From assembly GCA_007131945.1 (NCBI GenBank), contig SLPP01000011.1:1-27199 (forward strand): a stretch of 27,199 nucleotides of DNA, read 5' to 3'. The stretch is from Paracoccaceae bacterium (GTDB taxonomy: Bacteria > Pseudomonadota > Alphaproteobacteria > Rhodobacterales > Rhodobacteraceae). Shown here in pieces: positions 3,714 to 23,951 of this stretch (position 1 is the first letter of the stretch; each line of letters starts with the position of its first letter). The notes beneath the pieces were generated by a model. It did not search any database. It saw only the letters and a program-made list of their open reading frames with translations, and was not told the origin of the DNA. Both the position numbers and the translations under genes were made by a program.

Positions 3714-6274
3714 CCGACGCCACCGCCGACCGGACCCCCGCCGAGGCACGGGCCGAAACGCTCGCCATCCCCGCGAATCCGCCGCAACGGGCGCTGGCGC
3801 TGCATCGCGCGCTCGACCGCGTCTGGCGCAACGACCGCGGCTGGTGGGGCCAGGTCACCGCCGTCAACCACACCACGCTCGGCCTGCGCTTCATGGGCAC
3901 CGCGCTCGTCTTCTTCGCCATCGGCGGGGTGCTCGCGATGCTCGTCCGCACCCAGCTCGCGACGCCCGGCGGCGCCTTCCTCGACACCGAGCTCTACAAC
4001 CAGATCTTCACGATGCACGGCAGCATCATGATGTTCCTCTTCGCCATCCCGATGCTGGAAGGGCTGGGCATCTACCTGCTGCCGAAGATGCTGGGCACGC
4101 GCGACCTGGCCTTCCCGCGGCTCACCGCGCTCGGCTACTGGTGCTACCTGTTCGGCGGGCTGATCCTGCTCGCCGCGCTCCTCTTCGGGGTCGCGCCGCG
4201 CGACGGCTGGTTCATGTACACGCCGCTTTCTGGCGCCACCCATTCGCCCGGGATCAACGCCGATGTCTGGCTCCTCGGCATCACCTTCGTCGAGATCTCG
4301 GCGCTCTGCGCGGCGGTCGAGATCACCGTGACCATCCTGCGCCAGCGCGCGCCGGGGATGCGGCTGACCGAGATGCCGCTCTTCGCCTGGTACATGCTCG
4401 GCACCAGCGCCATGATGCTGGTGGGCTTTCCGCCGCTGATCCTCGCCTCGGTGCTGCTCGAGATCGAGCGCGCCTTCGACTGGCCCTTCTTCGAGGTTGC
4501 CCGCGGCGGCGACCCGCTCCTCTGGCAGCACCTCTTCTGGCTCTTCGGCCATCCCGAGGTCTACATCATATTCCTGCCCGCCGCCGGGGCGCTTTCGACC
4601 ATCATCCCGGTCATGTGCCGCACCGAGATCCTCGGCTACGGCGCCATCGTCGCGGCGATCCTGGCGCTGGTGTTCCTGTCCTTCGGGCTCTGGGTGCACC
4701 ACATGTTCACGGTCGGCATTCCGCACATGGCGCTCGCCTTCTTCTCCGCGGCCTCGCTTCTGGTCGCGGTGCCGACGGCGGTGCAGGTCTTCGCCTGGAT
4801 CGGCACGATGTGGAAGGGCCGGCCCGAACTGCACCTGCCGATGTATCACATCCTCGGCTTCTTCCTGACCTTCGTCATGGGCGGGCTCACCGGCGTCATG
4901 CTCGCGGTGGTGCCGTTCAACTGGCAGGCGCATGACACCGCCTTCGTCACCGCGCATCTGCATTACGTGCTGATCGGCGGCTTCGTCTTTCCGATGATGG
5001 CGGCGGCCGCCTGGTGGATGCCGCTGGTGAGCGGGCGCGCGCGCATCCGGAGCTTGGGCGAGGCCGCCTTCTGGCTCATCCTCGTCGGCTTTCACGGCAC
5101 GTTCTTCCTGATGCACCTGACCGGGCTTCTGGGCATGCCGCGGCGGATCGACGTCTATCCGGACAATCCCGAATGGATCTGGCTGAACCTGACCTCCTCG
5201 GTCTTCGGCTTCGTGATGACGATCGGCTTCGCGCTCTTCGCGCTCGATCTCGTCCTGCAGGCCGTGATGGGCCAGCGCAGCCGCCGCGATCCCTGGCGCG
5301 CGCCGACGCTGGACTGGAGCCTTGCGCTGCCCACGCCCAGCTACACCTTCGCCTCGATCCCCGGCCCGCGGCAGCTCGACCGGCCGGCCGGCGCGGTGGC
5401 GCTGCCGCTCGCCCGCGGCGAAGGGCTCCTGCCGGGCGCGCCGCGCCCGCGGCGCGAGCTTCTGGTCACGACCGTCGGCGATGCGCGACCGGACCACGTC
5501 GCGCTTCTGCCGGGCAACAGCGCGCTGCCGCTGGCGGTCGCGGCCGCGATCGGCTCCTTCGTGCTTCTGATGCTGGCGGGGTTCTACGCGCTCACCCCGC
5601 TGTCGCTGGTTCTGGTCGCCGTGCTGGTCTGGTGCTGGGGGCGCGGACTGGTGCGGCAGGGCGATGCCGCGCCCGTCGAGGTCGCGCCGGGCCTCTCGCT
5701 GCCGGTGCAGACTGCGCGGCGCCGGACCCTCGGCTGGAGCGGCAATCTCTGCCTGCTCCTCGCCAACGGCACGTTCTTCGCGTCGCTGATCTTCGGCGTC
5801 GGGTTTCTCTCCCTCGTCGCGCCAGGCTGGCCGGCTCCGCCAGCGCGCGCGGCCGATGCCGGAGCGGCGGGATGGGTCGTCGTGGCGCTGCTGGCGCTAC
5901 TCGTTGCGGCGATCTGTGCCCGCCTGGCCGACGCCCGACAGCGAAACGGCCATGTGTCGGGCCGCCCGGCGCTGGCGGGCGTCGCCGGCAATGCCGTCGC
6001 GCTCGTCGCCATCGCGGCGCTGGCGCTCCTTCACATGGACGACCCGACGCAGCACGCGCGTGACGCGCTGCGCGGCGTCCTGGCGGGCTACGCGGCGCTG
6101 CACGCGCTGACCGCCGGCGGCCTCGCCGCCTTCGCCTGGCAGCAGCTCCGCCGGGGCGAGATCGCAACCCGTCACGGCGGGGCACTGCCGACCTGGCGGC
6201 TCTGGCAGGATTTCGCCGCCGCCACGGCGCTGATCGGCGCGGCGCTGGTCATCGGGCAGGAGGCGCTGGGATGA
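3710..6274 (+). CDS. Cytochrome c oxidase subunit I fused to a subunit III-like domain
   Basis: Catalytic subunit (854 residues) that reduces oxygen at a heme-CuB centre. The start has a GAGGAGG ribosome-binding site and an ATGA overlap with subunit II. Residues 1-545 are subunit I: low-spin heme ligands His103 and His418, CuB ligands His281, His330 and His331, heme a3 ligand His416, the cross-linking Tyr285 and the gating Glu283 (GHPEVY). The D-pathway Asp132 is kept, but the K-pathway Lys is replaced by Gln359. After a Pro-rich linker, residues 600-854 form about seven helices resembling a degenerate subunit III, with LWQDFAAAT in place of the usual YWHFVD-type motif. The fusion recalls alternative oxidases of the CoxMNOP kind, but the exact subfamily is unconfirmed. 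Confidence 0.9.
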   Translation: MTDATADRTPAEARAETLAIPANPPQRALALHRALDRVWRNDRGWWGQVTAVNHTTLGLRFMGTALVFFAIGGVLAMLVRTQLATPGGAFLDTELYNQIFTMHGSIMMFLFAIPMLEGLGIYLLPKMLGTRDLAFPRLTALGYWCYLFGGLILLAALLFGVAPRDGWFMYTPLSGATHSPGINADVWLLGITFVEISALCAAVEITVTILRQRAPGMRLTEMPLFAWYMLGTSAMMLVGFPPLILASVLLEIERAFDWPFFEVARGGDPLLWQHLFWLFGHPEVYIIFLPAAGALSTIIPVMCRTEILGYGAIVAAILALVFLSFGLWVHHMFTVGIPHMALAFFSAASLLVAVPTAVQVFAWIGTMWKGRPELHLPMYHILGFFLTFVMGGLTGVMLAVVPFNWQAHDTAFVTAHLHYVLIGGFVFPMMAAAAWWMPLVSGRARIRSLGEAAFWLILVGFHGTFFLMHLTGLLGMPRRIDVYPDNPEWIWLNLTSSVFGFVMTIGFALFALDLVLQAVMGQRSRRDPWRAPTLDWSLALPTPSYTFASIPGPRQLDRPAGAVALPLARGEGLLPGAPRPRRELLVTTVGDARPDHVALLPGNSALPLAVAAAIGSFVLLMLAGFYALTPLSLVLVAVLVWCWGRGLVRQGDAAPVEVAPGLSLPVQTARRRTLGWSGNLCLLLANGTFFASLIFGVGFLSLVAPGWPAPPARAADAGAAGWVVVALLALLVAAICARLADARQRNGHVSGRPALAGVAGNAVALVAIAALALLHMDDPTQHARDALRGVLAGYAALHALTAGGLAAFAWQQLRRGEIATRHGGALPTWRLWQDFAAATALIGAALVIGQEALG

Positions 6275-9734: not shown

Positions 9735-10583
9735 ATGACAGAAAAACGAGACGCAGCCGTCGAAACGGCGCAGGAGAAACCGGGCGACGAGAGCATGGCG
9801 ATGCGCATCGCGGCGGAATTGCCCTATCTGCGCCGCTACGCGCGCGCGCTGACCGGCAGCCAGCAGTCCGGCGACCGCTACGCCGCGGCGACGATCGAGG
9901 CGCTGATCCACGACCGGTCGCTGCTCGAGGCCGAATCGAGCCCGAGGATCGCGCTCTTCCGCGCCTTTCACGTCGTCTGGCAGACATCCGGCGCCCCGGT
10001 CACGCGCGAGGGGGGTGACGGGCTCGAAACCCGCGCCCAGTCGCATCTCGGCCGGCTGACCCCGAACACGCGCGAGGCGCTCCTGTTGCGCACCATCGAG
10101 GGGTTCGACCATGCCGAGATCGGCCGGATCATGCAGATCGACCCGGCCGAGGCCGAGGAACTCGTCGCCATCGCCTATCGCGAGATGGAGACCAGCATCC
10201 GCGGCAGGGTCCTGGTGATCGAGGACGAACCCCTGATCGCGCTCGACATCAAGGGGATCGTTTCCGACATGGGGCACGCGGTCACGGGCATCGCCCGGAC
10301 GCACGACCAGGCGGTGAGCCTCGGGCGCAAGGAACGGCCGGACCTGATCCTCGCCGATATCCAGCTTGCCGACAATTCCTCGGGCATCGACGCGGTGAAC
10401 GAGATCCTCGCAGATCTCGGCGAGGTGCCGGTGATCTTCATCACCGCCTTCCCCGACCGGCTGCTGACCGGAGAGAAGCCCGAGCCCGCCTTCCTGATCA
10501 CCAAGCCCTTCGTGCCCGAGCAGGTGCGCTCGGCGGTGTCGCAGGCGATGTTCTTCGCCTCGACCGAAACGCTCTTCGGCTGA
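9735..10583 (+). CDS. phyR: General stress response regulator PhyR
   Basis: Anti-anti-sigma response regulator of 282 residues. Residues 20-150 form a sigma-like domain that mimics EcfG and binds NepR (LPYLRRYARALTGS, then LTPNTREALLLRTIEGF and EELVAIAYREME). Residues 155-280 form a receiver with acidic pocket Glu163/Asp164, phosphoacceptor Asp208 (ILADIQ), Thr237 and Lys257 (ITKPF). Phosphorylation opens the sigma-like domain, sequesters NepR and frees EcfG. GGGAGA lies 5 nt before the ATG at 9735. The frame is open further upstream to 9687, but that would overlap the promoter. The gene is transcribed away from the nepR operon and is followed by a 12-bp hairpin. Confidence 0.95.
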   Translation: MTEKRDAAVETAQEKPGDESMAMRIAAELPYLRRYARALTGSQQSGDRYAAATIEALIHDRSLLEAESSPRIALFRAFHVVWQTSGAPVTREGGDGLETRAQSHLGRLTPNTREALLLRTIEGFDHAEIGRIMQIDPAEAEELVAIAYREMETSIRGRVLVIEDEPLIALDIKGIVSDMGHAVTGIARTHDQAVSLGRKERPDLILADIQLADNSSGIDAVNEILADLGEVPVIFITAFPDRLLTGEKPEPAFLITKPFVPEQVRSAVSQAMFFASTETLFG

Positions 10584-10761: not shown

Positions 10762-10838
10762 CAAAGGTTTCATTACGGTTAATTTTTTCGATTTCCAGTT
10801 CAATATCAATGAACTGGAAAGAGGTTCACGCGTGGACC
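10762..10838 (-). repeat. Copy A of a four-copy 77-bp intergenic element
   Basis: Read on the minus strand: a 16-bp imperfect dyad GGTCCACGCGTGAACC (10838-10823), 13 bp, TTGATAT (10809-10803), then TTAACC starting 27 bp after the TTGA, then GAAACCTTTG starting 11 bp after TTAACC (10771-10762). A second, perfect 10-bp inverted repeat, TTTCCAGTTC with a 9-nt loop (10792-10820), overlaps it. It lies between the convergent 3' ends of phyR and the 10890-11141 gene, so it is not a promoter of either. The rest of the 306-bp gap holds only short GTCGGTCGTCGG-type repeats near 10650-10675. Confidence 0.7.
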
Positions 10839-10889
10839 AGCTGCCTGCGGCAACCTCCGGAAGCCAATTGGCGGTCGATGCCGGTCGAT

Positions 10890-11141
10890 TCAGTCCGCCG
10901 GTTCCGGCGCCGGATCGGTCGCCTCGTCGACGGTTTCTGCGTCGATCACCGGCGCGCCGGGCGCCGCGTCGGTCTCGGCCGGCGTTTCCGGCACGGGCGG
11001 CTCAGCCGTCTCGGTATCCACCGTGAAGGCGAGGAAAGCGAGGAAGAGCGCGCCGACGACGACAAGGACCGCCACGATTCCGATCAGCGGACCCCAGTGG
11101 CGTTTCTTCTGTTTCTCGACATTGGTTCTAGGAGCCGACAT
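10890..11141 (-). CDS. Small single-span membrane protein under EcfG control
   Basis: Protein of 83 residues: a basic cytoplasmic N-terminus ([12 protein letters not shown]), one membrane helix ([20 protein letters not shown]) and an acidic, Pro-rich tail of about 45 residues likely outside the cytoplasm. GGAGG lies 5 nt before the ATG at 11141, which favours this start over in-frame ATGs at 11159 and 11195. I do not recognise a named family, and no enzyme motif is visible. A perfect EcfG promoter at 11251-11227 on this strand makes it a predicted member of the general stress regulon, perhaps acting at the envelope. Confidence 0.8.
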
Positions 11142-11226
11142 CTTGCCTCCAGTCTTCATGTCCAGCCCACCGGCCCGCGCCTGTCTCGGCACCAAGGCCG
11201 GGAGCGGTACGCTTCGTCAGGAAACC

Positions 11227-11251
11227 AACGCAACCGACAGCGCGAGGTTCC
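11227..11251 (-). promoter_or_regulatory. EcfG promoter of the small membrane protein gene
   Basis: On the minus strand: GGAAC (11251-11247), 16-bp spacer, CGTT (11230-11227). It is a perfect consensus. The start codon at 11141 lies 86 bp downstream. Confidence 0.83.
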
Positions 11252-11314
11252 ATCCTCCACGGGTTTGCCAGCGATCGGCCGTCGGCCTGCTTCGGCCGGG
11301 CGACCGGATCATCG

Positions 11315-11339
11315 GGAACCGCGCGCGCCGATGCGTGTT
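11315..11339 (+). promoter_or_regulatory. Probable EcfG promoter of the DUF1328 gene
   Basis: GGAAC (11315-11319), 16-bp spacer, TGTT (11336-11339), one base off the -10 consensus. It lies 37 bp before the DUF1328 start and is divergent from the perfect promoter at 11227-11251. Confidence 0.6.
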
Positions 11340-11376
11340 GTCCCGCCAATCGCAACCTGATGTGAAAGGACATGCC

Positions 11377-11550
11377 ATGCTTGGTTGGGCCCTGACGTTC
11401 CTGATCGTTGCCCTCATCGCGGCCGCCCTCGGCTTCACCGGGATCGCCGGAGCGGCGTCCTCGATCGCGCAGATCCTGTTCGTCGTCTTCCTGATCCTGT
11501 TCGTCGTAGCCATGGTGTCGCGCGCGATCCAGGGCCGCCCGCCGGTCTGA
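11377..11550 (+). CDS. DUF1328-family small membrane protein
   Basis: Protein of 57 residues made of two membrane helices: [20 protein letters not shown], then a [11 protein letters not shown] link, then [17 protein letters not shown]. This matches the DUF1328 (YtjA-like) family along its whole length; the function is unknown. AAAGGA precedes the ATG at 11377. An out-of-frame ATG 5 bp upstream is not used. Its promoter is one base off the EcfG consensus, and such proteins are commonly stress-induced, so general stress control is likely. A 10-bp hairpin terminator follows. Confidence 0.9.
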
Positions 11551-11572
11551 CACCCGGCTGTTTTCCTTCCCG

Positions 11573-11598
11573 GGCCGCCGACCGCCGCGTCGGCGGCC
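11573..11598 (+). terminator. Hairpin terminator after the DUF1328 gene
   Basis: GGCCGCCGAC (11573-11582) and GTCGGCGGCC (11589-11598) pair perfectly around CGCCGC, followed by the moderately T-rich TGTTCTAATC. Confidence 0.68.
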
Positions 11599-11734
11599 TG
11601 TTCTAATCCGCTACCGGGATTCCCGGCCCGGGTCGGGCATTGCGATGACGCGCGGCAACACCGTGCGGGAAAGCCATCCTCCCGGTCGTCCCGATTCCCG
11701 GAAATGACCGTGGACAGACACGCGACGCGCGAGG

Positions 11735-11811
11735 TGCTCAAATTTGCGCAGCTCTACAAGTATCTGTAAGAAATACAGAATACGCCCGCGTTAACCACAA
11801 CGAAATCTTTG
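11735..11811 (+). repeat. Copy B of the four-copy 77-bp intergenic element
   Basis: A 16-bp dyad TGCTCAAATTTGCGCA (11735-11750; 7 of 8 positions symmetric), 13 bp, CTGTAAG (11764-11770) at the place of the TTGATAT box, TTAACC (11791-11796) 27 bp on, and GAAATCTTTG (11802-11811) 11 bp after that. The TTAACC/GAAATC part sits in the loop of a 6-bp stem (CCCGCG 11785-11790, CGCGGG 11812-11817). A small dyad CTGTA-N5-TACAG lies at 11764-11778. It lies between convergent genes. The rest of the 360-bp gap holds the hairpins described nearby. Confidence 0.65.
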
Positions 11812-11888
11812 CGCGGGCCGTCACGACGCCATCTCGAGCCGGGGACCCGCAGCGAACGAAGCCCGAAAACCGGGCATCGCGTCAAGCT

Positions 11889-11910
11889 GCCGGCATGATC
11901 GCCTGCCGGC
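11889..11910 (-). terminator. Stem-loop after the LacI-type regulator gene
   Basis: GCCGGCA and TGCCGGC form a 7-bp stem with an 8-nt loop immediately after the stop codon on the minus strand. A smaller stem, GCCCG/CGGGC, follows at 11861-11875. Confidence 0.5.
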
Positions 11911-12930
11911 TCAGCGCGTTTCGCCGGGGCGTCCTGTCGAATGGCGCTCGACCAGTTCGATCGGGAGCATCACATGCCCCGCCTTCGTCATGTCGGCGAT
12001 CAGGGCCAGGACGCGTTCCACCGTTTCGGAGCCGATCCGGGTGGCCGGGATCTCGACCGAGCTCAGCGACGGCGAGACATGGGCGGCAAGCTCGATATTG
12101 TCGATGCCCGCGATCGACATCTCCTCGGGCACCGCGATGCCCCGCGCGTGGCATTCGGCGATGGCGCCGATGGCGATGACATCGACGGTCCCGATCAGCG
12201 CCGTCGGGCGATCGGCAAGCTCGAGCAGGATGCTGCAGCCGACGCGTCCGCCCGGAACCGACAGCGCCTGTTCGGTGAGATAGGCGGCGGGCAGCGCCAC
12301 CCCGGCCTCGGAAAGCGCGGCGCGGATCCCCTCCAGCCGCGCGCGCTGGCGGTCGTTGTGGCGAAGGCGGCCGGTGATCACCGCGATCCGGCGATGGCCG
12401 AGGGCCAGAAGATGCCGCGCGACCAGTTCGCCCGCCGCGTGGTTGTCGACGCCGACACAGGCGTGATCGGAACGCCCGCACCACATCTGGACAACCGGGA
12501 CGCCGGCCGATTCGACGAGTTTCCAGGTCGCCTCGGGCCGGCTGCCGCCGACAAGGACGAGGCCGTCGATCCCGTGCGCCAGCAGCTTGTCCACCGCGGC
12601 GAACTCGCCAGCCGGATCGTATTCGTGCGAGGCGACGAGCAGCTGGTAGCCGGCGGCGTCGAGGCTGCGCTGCATCTCCTGCAGCGTGTCAGCGAAGATC
12701 GGGGAATTCAGCGTCGGGATCACCACGCCGACCGTATGCGACTTCCCGGAAGCGAGCGTGCGCGCCACGTGGTCCGGGCGGTAGCCGAGCCGCGCCGCCG
12801 CCGCGCGCACGCGTTCGAGCGTGTCTGCACGCAGCATCTCGGGCTGGGACATCGCCCGCGAGACGGTCGCGATCGAGACGCCGGCCGCGTGGGCGACATC
12901 GGTCAGGCTGGAGCGTTGACGGCGGGCCAT
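11911..12930 (-). CDS. LacI/GalR-family transcriptional regulator
   Basis: DNA-binding protein of 339 residues. The N-terminal helix-turn-helix is typical (LTDVAHAAGVSIATVSRAMS, about residues 9-28), followed by the hinge helix region RPDHVARTLASGKSHTVGVV. A periplasmic-binding-protein-like effector domain follows (VGVVIPTLNSPIFADTL to the C-terminus). It is divergent from the ABC/hps/suy operon starting at 13080, and a LacI-type operator lies in between (13029-13044). It is therefore likely a repressor of that operon that responds to a sulfonate or pathway intermediate. LacI control would be unusual for sulfonate genes, which in described cases often have LysR, GntR or IclR regulators. The ribosome-binding site is weak. 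A second operator-like site, TGCAAACTTTTCAT (12943-12956), lies just before its start. Confidence 0.92.
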   Translation of the reverse strand: MARRQRSSLTDVAHAAGVSIATVSRAMSQPEMLRADTLERVRAAAARLGYRPDHVARTLASGKSHTVGVVIPTLNSPIFADTLQEMQRSLDAAGYQLLVASHEYDPAGEFAAVDKLLAHGIDGLVLVGGSRPEATWKLVESAGVPVVQMWCGRSDHACVGVDNHAAGELVARHLLALGHRRIAVITGRLRHNDRQRARLEGIRAALSEAGVALPAAYLTEQALSVPGGRVGCSILLELADRPTALIGTVDVIAIGAIAECHARGIAVPEEMSIAGIDNIELAAHVSPSLSSVEIPATRIGSETVERVLALIADMTKAGHVMLPIELVERHSTGRPGETR

Positions 12931-12988
12931 GGAAAAAAGATCTGCAAACTTTTCATCTCCTTACATATCTCGAAAGAAAGGAGAAAGC

Positions 12989-13003
12989 AAGTTCCGAGAA
13001 CTT
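12989..13003. promoter_or_regulatory. Palindrome in the lacI/ABC operon intergenic region
   Basis: AAGTTC-CGA-GAACTT is a perfect 6-3-6 inverted repeat between the divergent genes. It could bind a second regulator; there is no direct evidence. Confidence 0.35.
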
Positions 13004-13008
13004 CCGCA

Positions 13009-13044
13009 TTGACGAAACAAATGACAAGATGTAAACGCTTTCAT
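13009..13044 (+). promoter_or_regulatory. LacI-type operator and promoter of the sulfonate operon
   Basis: ATGTAAACGCTTTCAT (13029-13044) fits the LacI/GalR-family operator pattern with a central CG and 6 of 8 symmetric positions. TTGACG at 13009-13014 can act as -35. The -10 would fall at about 13032-13037 (TAAACG, a weak match), inside the operator, which would give simple repression. The operon GTG start lies 36 bp downstream of the operator. Confidence 0.7.
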
Positions 13045-13079
13045 TACGCGTTCGTATCGCGGTCCTGAGGGAGGATGCC

Positions 13080-13865
13080 GTGCCAAGACGCCTGACAATC
13101 GGCGCCGCCACGATCCTGACGCTGGTCGTCCTGTGGTTCCTGGTAACCTCCGTCCTGGGGCTGATCGCCCCGGGGCGCTTCCCCTCGCCGCAGGCGACCA
13201 TCGCCGCGCTCGATCACGTGCTCTTCCGCGGCTATGCCGGTGGCACGCTCGTTGAGCACGTGGTCAATTCGCTCCGTCTGGTGCTGCTCGGATTCCTCGT
13301 CGCCATCGTCACCGGCGTCCCCTTGGGCCTGCTGATGGGCTGGAACCGGACCGCCGAGGCGCTGATCAATCCCGTCTTCCTGATCATCCGGCCGATCCCG
13401 CCGCTGGCCTGGATTCCGCTCGCCATCCTCTGGCTCGGGCTCGGCGACGGGGCGAAGATCATGGTGATCTGGTTCGCCGCCTTCGTTCCCTCGGTGATCA
13501 ACGCCTATGCCGGCGTGCGCACGATCGAGAAACCGGTGCTCGAGGCCGCAGCGATGCTGGGAACGCCGAAGCTGCGCTTCATCGTCGAGGTGCTGGTGCC
13601 GGCGGCGAGCCCGATGATCTTCACCGGCCTGCGCCTGTCGCTGCAGGCGTCCTGGACGACGCTGGTCGCGGCCGAACTGGTCGGCGCCTTCTACGGACTC
13701 GGCCGGGTGCTGAACGTCGCGCAGCAGGATCTCTATCCCGGCATGATCCTGGTCGGGATGATCGCCGTCGCGATCCTCGGCTGGGCGACGACCAAGGGCC
13801 TCGGCATGCTCGAGGCGCGCGCGCTGAGCTGGAACCAGGCCGCGGCGCTGGCAGGAAAGGGCTGA
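13080..13865 (+). CDS. ABC transporter permease 1, sulfonate/taurine (SsuC/TauC) type
   Basis: Inner-membrane permease of 261 residues of the binding-protein-dependent family. It has an N-terminal helix, a periplasmic SPQATIAAL stretch, about five further helices and the ATPase-contact (EAA) motif EAAAMLGTPKLRFIVEVLVPAASPMIFTGLR. The GTG at 13080 is used because GAGGGAGG lies 6 nt upstream; the nearby ATG at 13075 is out of frame. It is the first gene of the operon, and the second permease starts 3 bp after its stop. Two different permeases imply a heteromeric channel, unlike the single TauC or SsuC subunit of the classical systems. Confidence 0.9.
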   Translation: MPRRLTIGAATILTLVVLWFLVTSVLGLIAPGRFPSPQATIAALDHVLFRGYAGGTLVEHVVNSLRLVLLGFLVAIVTGVPLGLLMGWNRTAEALINPVFLIIRPIPPLAWIPLAILWLGLGDGAKIMVIWFAAFVPSVINAYAGVRTIEKPVLEAAAMLGTPKLRFIVEVLVPAASPMIFTGLRLSLQASWTTLVAAELVGAFYGLGRVLNVAQQDLYPGMILVGMIAVAILGWATTKGLGMLEARALSWNQAAALAGKG

Positions 13866-13868
13866 GCC

Positions 13869-14654
13869 ATGCCGAAGCGGATCGACTTCATGCGCAGCGT
13901 CCTTCTCGGCTTCCTCGGCCTCGCGCTCTTCCTCGGGCTCTGGCACGGTCTGTCGGCAAGCGGGATGGTTTCGCCGCTGTTCCTGCCGTCGCCCGTCGAG
14001 GTGCTCGAACGCTTTTCCACGCTGCTCGAGCGGCGCTTCGCCGGCGCCACCCTGCCCGCCCATCTCGCCGCGAGTTTCGAGCGCTTCGCCTACGGCTTCA
14101 TCCTCGCCGCGGCCATCGGCATCCCGCTCGGCCTGCTGATGGGCTGGTTCCAGATCCTCGACGAGATCGTCTCGCCGATCTTCGACGGGCTGCGCTTCAT
14201 CGCCCCGATCGCCTGGGTGCCCTTCGCCGCGCTCTGGTTCGGCACCGGCATCGGCGGGCCGATCATGATCATCTTCGCCGGCGCCTTCCCGCCCTGCGTG
14301 ATCAACGCCTATCGCGGCGCCAAGTTTGTCGACCCGCGGCTGATCGAGGCGGCGCGGATGCTGGGCACGCCGAACCACCGGGTGATCACCGAGATCCTGC
14401 TGCCGGCCTCGGTGCCCTCGATCATCTCGGGGCTGCGCGTCTCGGCCGGGCTGGGCTGGCAGAGCCTCGTCGGCGCCGAACTGATCGTCGCCTCGACCGG
14501 CGTCGGCTACTTGATGGTCATGGGGCAGGCAAACGTATCCACAACCACGGTGATGTCGGGAATGATCGCGATCGGCCTCGTCGGCCTCGCGCTCGATACC
14601 GCGCTGCGCTTCGCCGAGCGCATGATCCAGCGCCGCCGCGGTCTCGAGGTCTGA
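13869..14654 (+). CDS. ABC transporter permease 2, sulfonate/taurine type
   Basis: Permease of 261 residues, homologous to the preceding gene with the same length and topology. Its ATPase-contact motif is EAARMLGTPNHRVITEILLPASVPSIISGLR. A periplasmic SPVEVLERFSTLLE segment follows the first helix, as in TauC-like proteins. A paralogous pair separated by 3 bp suggests ancient duplication and a heterodimeric pore. The start at 13869 has AAAGGG upstream. Substrate inference rests on the downstream sulfonate enzymes. Confidence 0.9.
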   Translation: MPKRIDFMRSVLLGFLGLALFLGLWHGLSASGMVSPLFLPSPVEVLERFSTLLERRFAGATLPAHLAASFERFAYGFILAAAIGIPLGLLMGWFQILDEIVSPIFDGLRFIAPIAWVPFAALWFGTGIGGPIMIIFAGAFPPCVINAYRGAKFVDPRLIEAARMLGTPNHRVITEILLPASVPSIISGLRVSAGLGWQSLVGAELIVASTGVGYLMVMGQANVSTTTVMSGMIAIGLVGLALDTALRFAERMIQRRRGLEV

Positions 14655-14665
14655 GGGAGGAAGAG

Positions 14666-15463
14666 ATGGGTGTCATCCGCTTCGACAATGTCGGCCGCGT
14701 CTTCGGCGCGAAATCCAACCCCTTCGTCGCGTTGAAGGAGATCGACCTAGAAGTCGGCGACAAGGAATTCGTCGCCATCGTCGGGCCGTCGGGCTGCGGC
14801 AAGACGACCTGCCTGCGGCTGGTCGCGGGCTTCGACTTCCCCAGTTCCGGCAAGGTGCTGGTCGACGAGCAGCCGATCCGGCGCCCGCGCCCCGAGCGGG
14901 CGGTCGTCTTCCAGCAATTCGCGCTTTTTCCGTGGAAGACGGTGCACGACAATATCGAGCTTGGCCTGCGCAACCAGAGCGTCGCCAAGGCCGAGCGCGA
15001 GGAGCGGATCAACCGGATCCTCGAGCTGATGAACCTCACGGCCTACGCGAAGCACTTCCCGCACCAGCTCTCGGGCGGGATGCAGCAGCGCGTCGCCATC
15101 GCCCGGGCCTATGTGCTCGACCCCGACGTGCTCCTGATGGACGAGCCCTTCGGCGCGCTCGACGCGCAGACCCGCGTGGTCATGCAGGAGGAACTCGTCC
15201 GCCTCGCCCGCCGCAACCCGCGCACGGTCCTCTTCATCACCCATGCGGTCGAGGAGGCCGTCTACCTCGCCGACCGGGTGGCGATCATGACCCGCGCGCC
15301 GGGCCGCATCAAGGAAGTGCTCGACATCCGCTCGATCCGCGAGGCCGAGGACTGGGACAGCTACGAGAAGATCGAGGACGTGATGGACCTCGAAAGCTTC
15401 GTGCATCTGCGCACGCATATCTGGCGCAGCCTGCGTGAGGAGAAGGCGGCCGCAACCGCCTGA
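14666..15463 (+). CDS. ABC transporter ATP-binding protein, sulfonate/taurine type
   Basis: Cytoplasmic ATPase of 265 residues that drives the importer. Walker A is GPSGCGKTT (residues 40-48), the Q-loop lies in VVFQQFALFPW, the signature is LSGGMQQ (135-141), Walker B is VLLMDEP (155-161) and the H-loop is in LFITHAVEEA. The overall form matches TauB/SsuB. GAGGGAGG lies just before the ATG, 11 bp after the permease 2 stop. The C-terminal extension of about 40 residues (EDWDSYEKIEDVMDL) is acidic. Confidence 0.93.
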   Translation: MGVIRFDNVGRVFGAKSNPFVALKEIDLEVGDKEFVAIVGPSGCGKTTCLRLVAGFDFPSSGKVLVDEQPIRRPRPERAVVFQQFALFPWKTVHDNIELGLRNQSVAKAEREERINRILELMNLTAYAKHFPHQLSGGMQQRVAIARAYVLDPDVLLMDEPFGALDAQTRVVMQEELVRLARRNPRTVLFITHAVEEAVYLADRVAIMTRAPGRIKEVLDIRSIREAEDWDSYEKIEDVMDLESFVHLRTHIWRSLREEKAAATA

Positions 15464-15495
15464 AGAACGACACCAACAGCAACTTGGAGGATCCC

Positions 15496-16542
15496 ATGAA
15501 GACCCAGATTGCAGGCCTCGGGCTTGCGGCCCTTCTGACGACGACCGCCTTGCCGGTACAGGCGCAGGACCTGACGCCGATCAATGTCAGCTACCAGCCG
15601 GCGCTCTACTGGGCGCTGCCCTTCCACCTGGCCAACGAGATGGGCTGGTGGGCCGAGGTCGGGCTGCAGCCCTCGTTCACGACCTTCCCGGCGGGCGCAC
15701 CGCAGATCGCCGCGGCGCAGGCCAGAGACTGGGATGTGGGCGGCACCGGCTCGGTCCCGGCGGTGCTGGGGGCGGCGCGCTTCGGGCTCAAGACCATCGG
15801 CATCACCAACGACGAATCCGCCGCCAACGCGATGATGGCGCGCAACGAGGTGCTGGAGGGGCTGCGCGCCGATCCGTCCTCGATCGCCGGGCAGTCGATC
15901 CTGCTGACCACCAACTCGACCGTCGATTACGCCACCCAGGCCTGCCTGCGGATGTGGGGCGTGCCGGCGAGCGAGGTCGAGTTCGTGAACCTCGCCCAGG
16001 CGCAGATCATCTCGGCGGTGATCTCGCGCAACGGCGACATCGCCGGCGTGTGGGCGCCCAACACCTACACGCTGCAGGAGCGCGCCGACAGCGACTACCT
16101 CTGCTCCGGCGCCGATGCCGGCGCGATCGTGCCCGGCGCGCTGGTCGTGCGGCCGGAATATGCCGAGGAGAACCCCGAACTGGTGGCCCGCTTCCTGGCC
16201 GTCTACCTGCGCGGCTGGGCCTGGGCGGCCGAGAACCCCGACGAGGCGCGCTCGATGCTGGTCGATTTCTACTCCGAGGGCGGCGTGGAGATCTCGGATG
16301 CCGCCGTGAACGCCGAGTTCGACCTGCGCCCGACCTTCAACCTCGAGGAGCAGGTGGCGATACTCGATCGCTCGGGCGGAGCCTCGGACGTCGATCAGTG
16401 GCTCTCGGCCATCGGTGACTTCATGGTCGATGTCGGCACGTTCGACGTCAATCCTGACCCGGCCGAATACATCGACCCGAACTTCATGCAGATGGTGATG
16501 GACGACCCCGAGCTGGCCGCGTTCGCCACCCTGCAGGACTGA
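15496..16542 (+). CDS. ABC transporter substrate-binding protein, NMT1/TauA-like
   Basis: Periplasmic binding protein of 348 residues with a Sec signal peptide (MKTQIAGLGLAALLTTTALP, cleavage after VQA). The mature protein has the SsuA/TauA-like fold signs: INVSYQPALYWALPFHLANE, then AAAQARDWDVGGTGSVPA, then a FLAVYLRGWAWAAENPDEA helix. GGAGG ends 5 nt before the ATG. It is probably the specificity determinant for a C3 sulfonate, given the enzymes downstream. Within the operon it comes last of the transport genes, and a palindrome separates it from hpsN, which may let it be expressed above the enzymes. Confidence 0.9.
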   Translation: MKTQIAGLGLAALLTTTALPVQAQDLTPINVSYQPALYWALPFHLANEMGWWAEVGLQPSFTTFPAGAPQIAAAQARDWDVGGTGSVPAVLGAARFGLKTIGITNDESAANAMMARNEVLEGLRADPSSIAGQSILLTTNSTVDYATQACLRMWGVPASEVEFVNLAQAQIISAVISRNGDIAGVWAPNTYTLQERADSDYLCSGADAGAIVPGALVVRPEYAEENPELVARFLAVYLRGWAWAAENPDEARSMLVDFYSEGGVEISDAAVNAEFDLRPTFNLEEQVAILDRSGGASDVDQWLSAIGDFMVDVGTFDVNPDPAEYIDPNFMQMVMDDPELAAFATLQD

Positions 16543-19141
<2,599 letters not shown>

Positions 19142-19145
<4 letters not shown>

Positions 19146-19900
19146 GCCGGCTCGCCTCCCTCTTCGACCTGAACGGCCGGCGCGCGCTGGTCACCGGCGG
19201 CAGTTCCGGGCTCGGCCTCGCCATGGCGCGGGCGCTCGGGCTGCAGGGCGCGACGCTGCATCTCGCCGCGCGCTCGGCCGACCGGCTGGACACGGCGGTC
19301 GAAAACCTTGCCGCGGACGGGATCGCGGCCCGCCCGCACCCCGCCGATCTGGCTGATCCCGAGGCGCTGGCGGATCTGGCGGAGGCGGCCGGCGAGATCG
19401 ACATCCTGGTCAATGCCGCCGGCATCAACCTGCGCCGGCCCTTCGCCGAAGTGACCCCCGGGGCCTTCGACCTGCATATGGCGATCCACCTGCGCGCGCC
19501 CTTCCTGCTGACCCAGGCGCTGGCGCCGGGCATGGCGGCGCGGGGCTGGGGACGGATCGTCAACGTCGCCTCGCTGCAGTCGGTGCGCGCCTTCGCCGAC
19601 TCCGCCCCCTACGGCGCGGCCAAGGGCGGCGTCGTGCAGCTCACCCGCGCGATCGCCGAGGCCTGGTCGCGGCACGGGATCACCTGCAACGCGATCGCGC
19701 CGGGCTTCTTCCGCACGCCGCTGACCGAGGCCGTCTTCGCCGATCCCGAGCGCGCCGCGCGGAACGCGGCGCAGACCGCGCTCGGCCGCAACGGCGAGCC
19801 CGAGGACATCCACGGCCTCGTCGTCTTCCTGGCCTCGGCAGCCTCTGCCTATGTCACCGGCCAGACCATCTATCTCGACGGGGGGTTCACCGCGAAATGA
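19142..19900 (+). CDS. hpsO: Short-chain dehydrogenase, probable sulfopropanediol 2-dehydrogenase
   Basis: NAD(P)-dependent SDR of 252 residues. The nucleotide-binding motif is TGGSSGLG (18-25), the NAAG motif is at 91-94, and the catalytic Ser144, Tyr157 and Lys161 are in place. The usual helix-4 Asn of the catalytic tetrad appears as His116 (MAIHLRAP). In DHPS degraders HpsO and HpsP are C2 dehydrogenases that convert one enantiomer to the other through 3-hydroxy-2-oxopropanesulfonate. SDR type, operon position and the adjacent MDR gene fit HpsO, but I assign the symbol from context and memory, not a search. Overlaps of 4 bp at both ends show tight coupling. Confidence 0.7.
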
Positions 19901-20904
19901 GCGCAACCATGGAGGCCCTCGTCTACACCGCGCCAAACACGCTGGTGCTGCGCGAGACCGCGGTGCCCGAACCCGGCCCCGGCGAGGTGCTGGTGCGCGT
20001 CGGCGCGGTCGGGATCTGCGGGTCCGACATGCACGCCTATCACGGCCATGACAGCCGTCGCCCGGCGCCGCTGGTGCTGGGGCACGAGGCCGCGGGCACC
20101 ATCGTCTCGGGGCCGCGGACGGGGGCGCGGGTGACGATCAACCCGCTCGTCGTCGATCCGGACTGCCCGGCCGCGCGCGCCGGCCGCCCGCATCTGTCGC
20201 CGACGCGGCAGATCATCTCGATGCCGCCGCGCCCGGGAGCGTTTGCGGGTTTCGTCACGATCCCCGAGCGCAACGTGCTGCCGATCGGCGACGCGCTGGA
20301 TTTCCGCCGCGCGGCGCTGGCCGAGCCGATCGCGGTGTCCTGGCACGCGGTGCGGATCGGCTTCGAACGGCTTGGCCAGGCACCCGAAACCGCAAACGTC
20401 CTTGTCCTCGGCGGCGGCGCGATCGGGCTCGCCGCGGCGCTGGTGGCGCGCAGCAAGCGGTTGCGCGGGCTGTGGCTCGCCGAACCGAATGCCCGGCGCC
20501 GGGCGCAGATCGCGGCGCAGGGCGGCATCGTCGCCTACGATCCCGCCTCGGACGCAGCGCCCGAGGAAGTCGACCTGGTGATCGACGCCGTCGGTGCAGC
20601 GGCGACCCGCGCCGCGGCCTCGCGCCGCGTGCGCCCGGGCGGGGTGATCGTGCATGTCGGCCTTCTGCCGGGCGAGGCGGGTTTCGACATCCGCCGGATC
20701 ACGCTGCAGGAGATCACGCTCTGCGGGTCCTACTGCTACACGCCCGAGGATTTCGCGGCGACGCTCGCGGCGATGGAGGCAGGCGCGCTCGGCCCGCTCG
20801 ACTGGTTCGAGACGCGGCCCCTGGCGGCGGGGGCGCAGGCCTTCGCCGATCTCGACGCGGGCGCTGTCCCGGCAGCGAAGATCGTTCTGGTGCCCGGCGG
20901 ATGA
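19897..20904 (+). CDS. hpsP: MDR-type zinc dehydrogenase, probable sulfopropanediol 2-dehydrogenase
   Basis: Alcohol/polyol dehydrogenase of 335 residues. Catalytic zinc ligands are visible: Cys41 (GICGSD), His63 with Glu64 (GHE), and Glu143 (AEP). The Rossmann motif is LGGGAIG (171-177). The structural-zinc lobe has decayed: at the four positions that normally hold cysteines there are Asp87, Cys90, Ala93 and Ser101, so that zinc is probably absent. With the SDR it could racemise dihydroxypropanesulfonate through the C2 ketone (HpsP role). The assignment rests on context. It starts in an ATGA overlap with the SDR gene and is followed by an 8-bp hairpin. Confidence 0.7.
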
Positions 20905-20907
20905 GGA

Positions 20908-20926
20908 CGGGTCCGGGTCGGACCCG
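20908..20926 (+). other. Intercistronic hairpin between hpsP and suyA
   Basis: CGGGTCCG and CGGACCCG pair perfectly over a 3-nt loop, 3 bp after the hpsP stop. No T-run follows, so it could mark an mRNA processing or attenuation point in the 144-bp gap before suyA. No other signal is seen in that gap except two ribosome-binding sites. Confidence 0.5.
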
Positions 20927-21048
20927 GAGGAAGAATGCGGGCCCATCGCGCGACGGCGCGTGACCGGCCCGGAAGTTGCCGGCAGGGCGCGACGCCCGGG
21001 CCGGTGGAGGAGCGAATGCTCGAGGTTCAAGCAAGGGGAGTGGCGCAG

Positions 21049-21339
21049 ATGGCGACCAGACCGCACCTTCTGGTGCATCACAAGGGCGACAACGTCGGCG
21101 TTGTCGTCGTCGAGGGACTGACCGCGGGCACCGAGATGCTCGCGGTCTGCACCGAGGACGATTCCGACTTCCGGATCACGGCGAAGGCCGACATCCCGAT
21201 CGGCCACAAGGTGGCGCTCACGGCGCTAAGGGCCGGTGAGACGGTGATCAAGTACGGCGAGGACATCGGCAAGATGGTCGGTGACGCCGAGACGGGCGGG
21301 CACGTCCACACCCACAACCTCAAGACGAAGCGGTGGTAA
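21049..21339 (+). CDS. suyA: 3-sulfolactate sulfo-lyase small subunit SuyA
   Basis: SAF-domain protein of 96 residues that pairs with SuyB to split (R)-sulfolactate into pyruvate and sulfite in the cytoplasm. The UxaA/SuyA N-terminal pattern [18 protein letters not shown] and the C-terminal [12 protein letters not shown] are present. The ATG at 21049 fits the family start and has AGGGGAG 8 nt upstream. An ATG at 21016 with a stronger GGAGGAG site would add 11 residues and cannot be excluded. suyB starts 2 bp after the stop. A small altronate-dehydratase subunit would look similar, but the operon partners favour sulfolactate. Confidence 0.86.
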
Positions 21340-21341
21340 GC

Positions 21342-22523
21342 ATGGCACTGGATTTCACGAATGCGACGGTCAGGGCCTGGCGGCGCGAGAACGGCCGGGT
21401 GGGGGTGCGCAACCATGTGCTGATCCTGCCCGTCGACGACATCTCGAACGCCGCCTGCGAGGCGGTGGCGAACAATGTCAAGGGCACGATGGCGATCCCG
21501 CACGCCTATGGGCGGCTGCAGTTCGGCGAGGATCTCGAGCTGCACTTTCGCACCATCATCGGCACCGGCGCCAATCCGAACGTCGCCGCGGTGGTGGTGA
21601 TCGGGATCGAGCCGGAATGGACGAGGACGGTGGTCGAGGGGATCGCCAGGACCGGCAAGCCGGTGGAGGGCTTCTGGATCGAGCAGAACGGCGATTTCGA
21701 GACGATCCGGCGGGCCTCGTGGAAGGCGAAGGAATTCGTCCACTGGGCGAGCGAGCTGCAGAAGGAGGACGTGCCGCTCACCGATCTCTGGGTCTCGACC
21801 AAATGCGGCGAGAGCGACACGACGACGGGGCTGTCCTCCTGCCCGACGGTCGGCAACATGTACGACAAGCTCCTGCCGCACGGGCTCTACGGCGTCTTCG
21901 GCGAGACCTCCGAGATCACCGGGGCCGAGCATATCTGCGTCAAGCGCGCGGCCAGCCCGGAGGCCGCCGAGAAGTTCATGAAGACCTGGCAGGCCTATCA
22001 GGACGAGGTGATCGAGCCCTTCAAGACCTCGGACCTTTCAGACAGCCAGCCGACCAAGGGCAACATCCTCGGCGGGCTGACGACGATCGAGGAGAAGGCG
22101 CTGGGCAATCTCGAGAAGATCGGGCGGAGCTCGAGCTACATCGACGTGCTGGAGCCGGCCGAGGCGCCGGCCAAGGGGCCGGGGCTCTACTTCATGGACA
22201 CCTCCTCGGCGGCGGCGGAATGCGTCACGCTGATGGCGGCGGCGGGCTACGTCATCCACACCTTCCCGACCGGGCAGGGCAACGTCGTCGGCAACCCGAT
22301 CGTGCCGGTGATCAAGATCTCGGGCAATCCGCGGACGCTGAGGACGATGTCGGAGCATATCGATGTCGACGTGACCGGGGTGCTGACGCGGGAGATGACG
22401 ATCGAGCAGGCGGGCGACGCGCTGATCGAGATGATCCGGCGCACCGCCAACGGCCGCTTCACCGCCGCCGAGGCGCTGGGGCACCGGGAATTCTCGATGA
22501 CCAAGCTCTACCGTTCGGCGTGA
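21342..22523 (+). CDS. suyB: 3-sulfolactate sulfo-lyase large subunit SuyB
   Basis: UxaA-family catalytic subunit of 393 residues. It removes sulfite from (R)-sulfolactate and leaves pyruvate. Family signs are [20 protein letters not shown] near the N-terminus, [20 protein letters not shown] (Cys155 and Cys167, candidates for the metal site) and [20 protein letters not shown]. The related altronate dehydratases have the same fold. SuyB is preferred because of the separate small subunit, the hpsN-type enzymes upstream and the YeiH exporter downstream. The start lacks a good ribosome-binding site, so translation is probably coupled to suyA. The operon ends in a 14-bp hairpin. Confidence 0.9.
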
Positions 22524-22529
22524 CCGGGG

Positions 22530-22564
22530 CCGGCCGGCGGGGGCATCGAACCCCCGCCGGCCGG
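22530..22564 (+). terminator. Strong hairpin ending the sulfonate operon
   Basis: CCGGCCGGCGGGGG (22530-22543) and its exact complement (22551-22564) form a 14-bp stem with a 7-nt loop, 6 bp after the suyB stop. There is no T-run, but it is the most stable stem in the window. Confidence 0.78.
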
Positions 22565-22627
22565 TCGGGCGCCTTGCGCCCTCCATCCGCGCCCCGGGTC
22601 GGGCTTGGAGACCGGCGACGGGGCCGG

Positions 22628-22704
22628 TGCTCGCATGCGAGCACTTTTCCAATTCGTTGATATAAAGAGATGATCCAGCCTCATTAACCACAACGAAACC
22701 TTTG
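22628..22704 (+). repeat. Copy C of the four-copy 77-bp intergenic element
   Basis: A perfect dyad TGCTCGCATGCGAGCA (22628-22643, extendable to 18 bp), 13 bp, TTGATAT (22657-22663), TTAACC (22684-22689) 27 bp on, and GAAACCTTTG (22695-22704) 11 bp after that. It ends 57 bp before the YeiH-type exporter start and may contain its promoter, but no good -10 is visible. Confidence 0.75.
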
Positions 22705-22761
22705 TTCCGGGGTCCCGCAAGGCAGGCGCCGGGTGATGCCGGCGGGTGCGGGAGACTGACG

Positions 22762-23808
22762 ATGGCGCAGGAACAGGACGGGAAGGAACGACCCCGGGGG
22801 CCGGCGGCGGCGGCCGGACAGGCGGCGCGGCGGCTGGCGCCCGGGCTCCTGCTCTGCGCGACGATCGCGGCGGCGGCGAGCTTTCTTGCCGATCACTACG
22901 GCGCCCCGGCGATGCTGTTCGCGCTCCTGATCGGGATCGCGTTCAACTTCGTCATGGAGGAGGGCCGCGCGGCGCCCGGCGTCGACCTCGCGGCGAAGTT
23001 CGTGCTGCGCCTCGGCGTCGGGCTTCTCGGCATCCGCATCACCTGGGACCAGATCGCCGCCTTCGGCTGGCAGACGCCGGCGGTGGTCGCCGGGCTGATC
23101 GCGCTGACCATCGCCGCGGGCTTCGTCGCCGCGCGCGCCTTCGGGCGGCAATGGCGCTTCGCGGTGATGACCGGCGGCGCGGTGGCGATCTGCGGCGCCT
23201 CGGCGACGCTCGCCATCGCCGCGGTGATCCCGCACAACGACAAGACCGAGCGCAACACGCTCTTCACCGTGGTCGCGGTCACGACGCTGTCGACCGTGGC
23301 GATGGTGCTCTACCCGATCCTCTTCGGCCTGCTCGACCTTTCCGAACGCGAGATCGGCTTCCTGATCGGCGCCACGATCCACGATGTCGCGCAGGTGGTC
23401 GGCGCGGGCTATTCCGTGTCCGAGGGCGCGGGCGACGCGGCGACGGTGGTCAAGCTGATGCGCGTGGCGATGCTGCCGGTGGTGCTCGTCGCGCTGGTCC
23501 TGGTCCTGCGGTTCTCGGGCGCGGCGCGGCCGGGGGCGCGGGTGCCGCTGCTGCCGTGGTTCATGCTCCTGTTCATCGCGCTCTCGGTCATCGCCAGCAC
23601 CGTCGCGCTGCCCGGCTGGCTGACCGGCGCGGTCGAGACGGCCTCGCGGGCGATGCTGCTGACGGCGATCGCGGCGCTCGGCGTCAAGACCGCGCTCCGC
23701 TCGATGCTGGCGGTGGGCGGCGGGCATGTCGGCGTGGTCACCGCCGAGACGCTGTTCCTGCTGGTCGCCGCGGTCGCGGCGCTGCAGCTCTTGCTGTCCT
23801 TCGCGTGA
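22762..23808 (+). CDS. suyZ: YeiH-family putative sulfate exporter
   Basis: Inner-membrane protein of 348 residues with about ten helices. Family marks are ICGASATLAIAAVIP and FLIGATIHDVAQVVGAGYSVS. Proteins of this family follow suyAB in Paracoccus and are proposed there to export the sulfate made by oxidising released sulfite (SuyZ). The same placement here supports that role, though direction of transport and ion are inferred. GGGAGA precedes the ATG at 22762. The gene lies between element copies C and D and after a strong terminator, so it probably has its own promoter. Confidence 0.82.
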   Translation: MAQEQDGKERPRGPAAAAGQAARRLAPGLLLCATIAAAASFLADHYGAPAMLFALLIGIAFNFVMEEGRAAPGVDLAAKFVLRLGVGLLGIRITWDQIAAFGWQTPAVVAGLIALTIAAGFVAARAFGRQWRFAVMTGGAVAICGASATLAIAAVIPHNDKTERNTLFTVVAVTTLSTVAMVLYPILFGLLDLSEREIGFLIGATIHDVAQVVGAGYSVSEGAGDAATVVKLMRVAMLPVVLVALVLVLRFSGAARPGARVPLLPWFMLLFIALSVIASTVALPGWLTGAVETASRAMLLTAIAALGVKTALRSMLAVGGGHVGVVTAETLFLLVAAVAALQLLLSFA

Positions 23809-23873
23809 CCGAATGGGGGCCTCGTGCAACGATGGATGCTTCGGATATGCGCGGGACCGGCGATCCGGCCGGC

Positions 23874-23951
23874 TGCTCGCCAGCGAGCAATCCGGCAAGC
23901 CATTGACATGTATTCACAATATCTGGACAATTTACCGAAATGAAACCTTTG
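23874..23951 (+). repeat. Copy D of the four-copy intergenic element
   Basis: Dyad TGCTCGCCAGCGAGCA (23874-23889), 13 bp, TTGACAT (23903-23909), TTTACC (23931-23936) 28 bp on, and GAAACCTTTG (23942-23951) 11 bp after that. TTGACA with GACAAT 17 bp downstream (23926-23931) would make a fair sigma70-type promoter toward cuyA. Copies C and D share the half-sites TGCTCGC/GCGAGCA exactly. Confidence 0.75.

What the first reader, a model, noticed from the sequence alone, without database searches (positions are those of the whole stretch)
10762..23951. Four 77-78 bp intergenic elements with fixed internal spacing
At 10762-10838 (minus), 11735-11811, 22628-22704 and 23874-23951 the same architecture recurs: a 16-bp dyad, exactly 13 bp, a TTGAYAT box (CTGTAAG in copy B), TTAACC (TTTACC in D) 27-28 bp after the TTGA, and GAAACCTTTG (GAAATCTTTG in B) exactly 11 bp after TTAACC. 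Dyad sequences vary (TGCTCGC halves in C and D, TGCTCAAA in B, GGTCCACG in A) but length and position do not. Sequence outside the boxes is not conserved, which argues for a protein-binding or promoter architecture and not a recent duplication. TTAACC-N5-GAAACC has the 11-bp phasing of CtrA sites (TTAA-N7-TTAA), so a CtrA-like response element with an upstream dyad-binding partner is one reading.
Basis: partly seen in the sequence, partly recalled or inferred. Interest (0 to 1): 0.82.

Follow-up and report, generated by a model that had tools for sequence, protein, structure and literature searches.

The report
Dispersed IHF-site palindromes at gene ends
An alphaproteobacterial genome carries many copies of an 80-base DNA element that sits almost only after gene ends, pairing a mirror-image sequence that varies from copy to copy with a likely binding site for a DNA-bending protein, and it was found in only a few related genomes.

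Summary
The four copies belong to a genome-wide family: 135 core matches in the 3.29-Mb home genome against 0 for the reversed pattern. It is not a promoter element: of 137 distinct copies in two genomes, 86 lie between convergent genes, 36 between tandem genes, 1 between divergent genes and 14 at contig edges. The 11 close pairs are all core to core. At 7 of 88 gene junctions shared by two species only one has the element; at the four read in full the gap differs by 80-178 b. With the main core, only three related genomes carry it, among 18 congeners, 393 further family genomes and an 84,980-species collection. Best reading: a new variant of the RIB/BIME-1 kind of IHF-binding 3'-end repeat, without REP heads, and without a RAYT gene in two of three carriers. 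Function is inferred, not shown. CtrA-like full sites occur in 2 of 22 variant copies.

The parts
10762..10839 (-). Element A: dyad 10837-10824 (GTCCACGCGTGAAC, 7 of 8 pairs), IHF-like box 10816-10804, core 10782-10762; in the gap between phyR and a convergent hypothetical gene
   Evidence: neighbours
11734..11811 (+). Element B: dyad 11736-11749 (7 of 8 pairs), IHF-like box 11757-11769, core 11791-11811; between the DUF1328 gene and the convergent LacI-family gene
   Evidence: neighbours
22627..22704 (+). Element C: perfect dyad 22629-22642 (GCTCGCATGCGAGC), IHF-like box 22650-22662, core 22684-22704; after the galactarate/altronate-dehydratase-like gene, tandem with the next gene
   Evidence: neighbours
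23873..23951 (+). Element D: dyad 23875-23888 (GCTCGCCAGCGAGC, central pair not complementary), IHF-like box 23896-23908, core 23931-23951 (TTTACC); after the PF03601 (Cons_hypoth698) gene, tandem with the next gene
   Evidence: neighbours

Best explanation
It is a dispersed, insertable DNA element of about 80 bp that works as a protein-folded DNA site at the ends of genes, like the IHF-binding RIB/BIME-1 repeats of E. coli. Shown here: a fixed three-part plan (symmetric palindrome, IHF consensus, two half-sites 11 bp apart); location at gene 3' ends, mostly between convergent genes; core-to-core pairing; presence in one species and absence in another at orthologous junctions; restriction, in what was searched, to three related genomes. 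Inferred: IHF binds and bends the DNA, so that a dimeric protein on the palindrome and a response-regulator-like or other protein on the half-sites meet. The complex marks the ends of transcription units (topological or 3'-end boundary) and/or is the substrate by which the element spread. Location at gene ends would follow if promoters and coding DNA do not tolerate the insertion.
For: Copy number against reversed controls. IHF box at +15 in 133 of 137 copies; 122 of 137 match at least 7 of 9 consensus positions, against about 17% of shuffled segments. IHF alpha and beta genes present in the home genome. Palindrome halves covary: pairs 1-8 are Watson-Crick in 106, 135, 131, 133, 126, 130, 133 and 109 of 137, against shuffle means 53, 68, 73, 133, 40, 67, 133 and 54; 49 distinct 14-mers. 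Context 86 convergent, 36 tandem, 1 divergent, 14 at contig edges, against 130, 306 and 188 intergenic regions of at least 100 b. 11 of 11 pairs closer than 200 b are core to core. Orthologous junctions home/G012: both 3, home only 6, G012 only 1, neither 78, of 88. Three of the one-sided junctions have conserved gene ends and gaps of 106 v 3, 96 v 14 and 6 v 184 b; at a fourth (76 v -4) the element supplies the last codons and the stop. No near-identical copies, yet intact boxes.
Against: No binding, transcription or mobility data. No mobilising enzyme was found: Y1 transposase 0 in the home genome and G008, Y2 0 in all three carriers. E. coli RIBs have two inverted REPs; here there is one palindrome and no GTAG head. 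The palindrome side is nearer its gene's stop in 47 of 67 single-copy convergent gaps (core side nearer in 19; Wilcoxon p 6e-5), which a purely inert insertion would not need. Few orthologous junctions could be compared; the gap differences at the four read in full are 103, 82, 178 and 80 b, not one exact unit; at one of the three shared junctions the two species have it in opposite orientation.
Confidence: 0.72

Rival explanations
1. It is mainly a transcription terminator or mRNA 3'-end element: the palindrome forms an RNA hairpin that ends or protects the transcript of the gene upstream, and the rest is a downstream helper.
For: Gene 3' ends; palindrome side nearer the stop in 47 of 67 single-copy convergent gaps; in 11 of 11 close pairs each palindrome faces its own gene; hairpin MFE median -10.6 kcal/mol. 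A classical terminator between stop and same-strand element was found at only 1 of 50 (home) and 1 of 21 (G012) convergent ends, against 11 of 64 ends in G002.
Against: That scarcity does not discriminate: convergent ends without any element in the carriers are also poor in scanned terminators (2 of 36 and 6 of 38; shuffled 3 and 5). Weak T-tract: median 2 T in the 8 nt after the stem, 138 copies. The two central pairs, which an RNA hairpin loop cannot form, also covary (pair 2: 135 of 137, shuffle 68; pair 1: 106 of 137, shuffle 53). 18 of 36 tandem copies point against the genes. At locus L108/L187 a classical terminator is kept beside the element in both species (by eye).
Confidence: 0.17
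2. It is a recombinase attachment-like site: a core palindrome, an IHF bend and arm-type direct repeats, the plan of lambda-type att sites (recalled), recognised by a tyrosine recombinase that moved it.
For: Same order of parts at fixed spacing; variable core with conserved arms; presence/absence at orthologous junctions; opposite orientation at one shared locus.
Against: No recombinase gene was tied to the elements; PF00589 occurs in all 18 congeneric genomes, so its presence is uninformative. Inserts seen are single units, not cassettes flanked by two sites. No palindrome is left in the three short empty gaps read (3, 14 and 6 b).
Confidence: 0.06
3. One reading: a CtrA-controlled promoter or response element with an upstream dyad-binding partner.
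For: TTAACC in nearly all copies with a second half-site 11 bp on; 2 of 22 variant copies carry exact TTAA-N7-TTAA.
Against: 1 of 123 copies with both neighbours lies between divergent genes; second half-site TTAA in 0 of 138 main-family copies; absent from most relatives searched.
Confidence: 0.04
4. A classical REP family moved by a RAYT transposase.
For: Palindromic, extragenic, many copies, compensatory changes as reported for REPs (passages of PMC2817692); 3 PF01797 match rows in G012.
Against: PF01797 absent from the home genome and from G008; no GTAG head in the logos.
Confidence: 0.01

Closest known systems
RIB / RIP / BIME-1 elements of E. coli (Boccard and Prentki 1993: only the title seen, in the reference list of PMC12306157; BIME-1 described in a passage of PMC2817692; the name RIP is recalled)
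   Different: One palindrome per unit, of free but symmetric sequence; no GTAG REP head; an extra box of two half-sites 11 bp apart; no RAYT in two of three carriers; pairs are two whole elements core to core.
GTAG and CGTC REP super-families (passages of PMC3733652)
   Same: Short palindromic repeats, mostly between convergent and unidirectional genes, forming dimers; CGTC type without a known transposase.
   Different: No unpaired GTAG or CGTC tag in the logos; about 80 bp with IHF and half-site boxes instead of 20-40 bp.
CIR, Caulobacter CcrM-associated intergenic repeats (PMC2229807, section 7 read)
   Same: Alphaproteobacterial intergenic repeat of about 100 bp with inverted repeats and a site for a regulatory protein.
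   Different: GANTC is conserved there; here GANTC in 12 of 137 copies.
CtrA full site TTAA-N7-TTAA (passage of PMC6180460)
   Same: TTAACC with a second half-site at the same 11-bp phasing; 2 of 22 variant copies match exactly.
   Different: Second half-site is GAAA-type in the main family; sites are at gene ends, not promoters.

Membership tests
RIB/BIME-1 | IHF-binding site within the repeat | tested here: inconclusive
   Consensus met at +15 in 133 of 137 copies and IHF genes present; binding itself not testable here.
[quoted passage not shown]
   86 convergent, 36 tandem, 1 divergent, 14 at contig edges, of 137
RIB/BIME-1 | Two inverted REP sequences flanking the IHF site | tested here: not met
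   One palindrome per unit; the other end is the core
REP (RAYT-associated) | GTAG-type head next to the palindrome | tested here: not met
   Logos show none
REP (RAYT-associated) | RAYT (Y1) transposase in the genome | tested here: not met
   PF01797: 0 in G000, 0 in G008, 3 match rows in G012; G000 is 92% and G008 82% complete
CIR | Conserved GANTC | tested here: not met
   12 of 137
CtrA promoter site | TTAA-N7-TTAA | tested here: not met
   0 of 138 in the main subfamily; 2 of 22 variant copies
CtrA promoter site | Upstream of regulated genes, near -35 | tested here: not met
   1 of 123 in a divergent region; start sites not testable here
Intrinsic terminator | Hairpin followed by a T-tract | tested here: inconclusive
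   Hairpin yes; T median 2 of 8, 138 copies
lambda-type att site | Recombinase acting on core and arm sites | not testable with these tools
   PF00589 in all 18 congeners, uninformative
MITE | Terminal inverted repeats | tested here: not met
   The two ends differ in the logos: palindrome at one, core at the other
MITE | Presence/absence at orthologous sites | tested here: met
   7 one-sided junctions of 88; four read

The most novel reading that the evidence does not exclude
A self-dispersing three-part nucleoprotein element: IHF folds the DNA so that a CtrA-family (or arm-binding) protein on the half-sites meets a protein that demands two-fold symmetry but tolerates many sequences (49 distinct 14-mers in 137 copies). 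Such symmetry-reading at the ends of genes, possibly under cell-cycle control, would be a class of chromosomal element not described in what I searched.
Probability: 0.2. Interest if true: 0.85.

Novelty: new variant of a known kind. Interest (0 to 1): 0.62.

Why it matters
It suggests that IHF-binding palindromic repeats at gene ends, known from E. coli, also arose in a Rhodobacteraceae lineage with other parts. The symmetric but sequence-free palindrome is unusual: it allows a direct test of whether a protein (or DNA cruciform) reads symmetry itself. Because carriers and apparent non-carriers are congeners and empty sites exist, gain, function and effect on neighbouring genes can be tested by comparing them.

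Tried and rejected
Rejected: promoter reading (location); RAYT-REP; rolling-circle Y2 transposase; CIR; a known Rfam family: 0 matches over the window at gathering scores; presence in viral contigs: 0 exact core matches. Uninformative: tyrosine recombinase counts; recurrent gene families next to elements (largest cluster 7 of 236 adjacent genes). The intrinsic-terminator scan was inconclusive: home-genome ends facing the core side gave 19 of 42 against 10 of 42 shuffled, ends without element 2 of 36 against 3. Single core matches outside the three carriers (G006, G009, G014; four of the family sample) were inspected and are not elements. The one exact core match of G014 was read by eye and lacks the palindrome. 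(gene caller trained on shadow frames) was replaced; searches used a wrong frame for rpoB and are replaced. Rows dropped: one search kept 89 of 93 hits (3 cut by a contig end, 1 duplicate); one search used 118 hits and counted the 102 even-centred ones scoring 5 or more; include a few hits without palindrome (reversed controls 2 and 2), removed by the score; searches dropped 1 duplicate of 138.
Full report
Observation. A core pattern has 23 matches in the home genome and none when read backwards; with up to 3 mismatches 135 against 0. The home genome has 3,292,963 b in 417 contigs and is about 92% complete.

Anatomy. I collected copies from 61 stretches of the home genome (the window and 60 stretches chosen because they carry core matches, 533,720 b) and 59 stretches of congener G012 (1,151,095 b, most on contigs first chosen because they carry exact core matches). 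A score joining core, left half and palindrome gives 138 copies (85 and 53; 137 distinct) with 0 in the reversed sequences and 0 in 400,000 b of congener G002. Aligned on the palindrome centre the plan is: G-Y-N-C-R-M-N|N-K-Y-G-N-R-C; T-rich positions +10 to +12; C15 A16 A17 N4 Y22 T23 G24 A25; an A/T-rich stretch; then TTAACC-RCAAY-GAAASYTTTSG, 49 or 50 bp from the centre (103 and 32 copies; 48 and 51 bp once each). The CAA-N4-TTGATW box is the reverse of the IHF consensus WATCAANNNNTTR (consensus recalled). It sits at +15 in 133 of 137, and 122 of 137 match at least 7 of 9 positions against about 17% of shuffles. Two home-genome proteins score above the NCBIfam cut-offs for IHF alpha and beta.

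The palindrome. 91 of 137 14-mers are perfect and 49 different 14-mers occur. Pair 5 is any of four base pairs (48 CG, 37 GC, 29 TA, 12 AT), Watson-Crick in 126 of 137, shuffle mean 40. The central pair is Watson-Crick in 106 (shuffle 53) and pair 2 in 135 (shuffle 68). A hairpin loop does not explain pairing of the central bases, so symmetry of the double strand, or a mechanism that copies one half to the other, is favoured over RNA alone. Shared ancestry of palindrome types inflates such counts; the shuffle does not correct for it.

Location. With genes from my own caller (onward), 86 of 137 copies lie between convergent genes, 36 between tandem genes, 1 between divergent genes, 14 at contig edges; intergenic regions of at least 100 b number 130, 306 and 188. 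Of 123 copies with a gene on both sides 1 overlaps a called gene by more than 25 b. Tandem copies point with the genes 18 times and against them 18 times. Convergent gaps are longer in the carriers' stretches (median 188 b of 73 and 220 b of 48) than in G002 (58 b of 46). The 11 pairs closer than 200 b are all core to core. In single-copy convergent gaps the palindrome side is nearer its gene's stop in 47 of 67, the core side in 19.

Gain and loss. Of 88 gene adjacencies shared by the home genome and G012, both have an element at 3 (all convergent, one inverted, different palindromes), the home genome alone at 6, G012 alone at 1, neither at 78 (main subfamily only). At three one-sided junctions the gene ends align and the gap is 106 v 3, 96 v 14 and 6 v 184 b; at a fourth the home gene's last codons and stop are element sequence, gap 76 v -4. 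At a fifth the other species has a longer gap without a main-subfamily element (188 v 464 b). At the phyR 3' junction the home genome has element A, while G008 and G002 show a hairpin with a T-run or T-poor tail and no element (read by eye). Copies of equal spacing share at most 81% identity, median 58%: old, yet with intact boxes.

Distribution. In 18 congeneric genomes: home 126, G012 116, G008 46, three others one each and 12 none; the single ones are not elements. In the 84,980-species collection exact core matches lie in 34 stretches of two assemblies, Pararhodobacter sp. SW119 (27) and MAG Rhodobacteraceae CSSed165cm_288 (7) (the home genome may be left out there); contig lengths and positions identify them with G012 and G008. 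Of 393 other genomes of the family sample, 4 had one match each, none an element; the reversed pattern had 11 matches in 10 of those genomes (counted by eye). rpoB DNA groups the home genome and G012 with 93% support; G008, without rpoB, could be placed only by PhyR, at no more than 69%. Scanned with the left half alone, G002 gave 0 in 412,456 b and eleven other congeners 0 in 7,036-48,481 b each; G005 and G013 were not scanned. So variant copies in other congeners are not excluded.

A wider family. The left half alone finds 20 further copies in G012 and 2 in the home genome with a different right half; reversed sequences gave 0 at that threshold. In 15 of 22 two NNAACC half-sites lie 11 bp apart with at most 1 mismatch, against 0 of 22 for the reversed segments; 2 of 22 (L076, L281) are exact TTAACC-N5-TTAACC; 7 of 22 show no such pair within 1 mismatch. 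So the right half is best seen as two half-sites, of which TTAACC...GAAASY is the main form. This is the CtrA full-site geometry (PMC6180460, passages), but no CtrA binding was or could be tested.

Mechanism and comparison. I favour a DNA element folded by IHF at gene ends, the working plan of E. coli RIB/BIME-1 (a title in a reference list, and passages of PMC2817692), but not a member by the two-REP criterion. What it does to the neighbouring genes, and what moved it, is inference. Literature: the listings of searches show no description of such an element in Rhodobacteraceae; the library holds open-licence papers only, and the RIB and CIR originals were not held.

Noticed in passing
window 9735-10583: PhyR-like general stress regulator beside element A (pfam); what follows phyR differs among congeners.
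   Followed up: partly
window 3710-6274: 854-aa protein with COX1 over residues 57-502; the remaining ~350 residues match no Pfam family, so it may be a fused oxidase subunit (inference).
   Followed up: no
L098 (G000:C274), junction of called genes 0 and 1: A called gene ends in codons and a stop supplied by the element core (C-terminal MREKFRYG), unlike its G012 counterpart.
   Followed up: partly
L108 and L187: A gene with a conserved C-terminus keeps a classical terminator in both species, followed by the element in opposite orientations with similar palindromes.
   Followed up: partly
G012 loci L183, L266, L270, L271, L274, L288: Variant copies with a CGTGAT-containing stretch before the half-sites (by eye): perhaps a further subfamily.
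   Followed up: partly
G000:C70:4461 and 4638-5183: The home genome's best tyrosine-recombinase match lies next to an element, facing its core side; probably chance.
   Followed up: no
G014:C6:214106-214657: A Y2 transposase match in a congener without elements.
   Followed up: no
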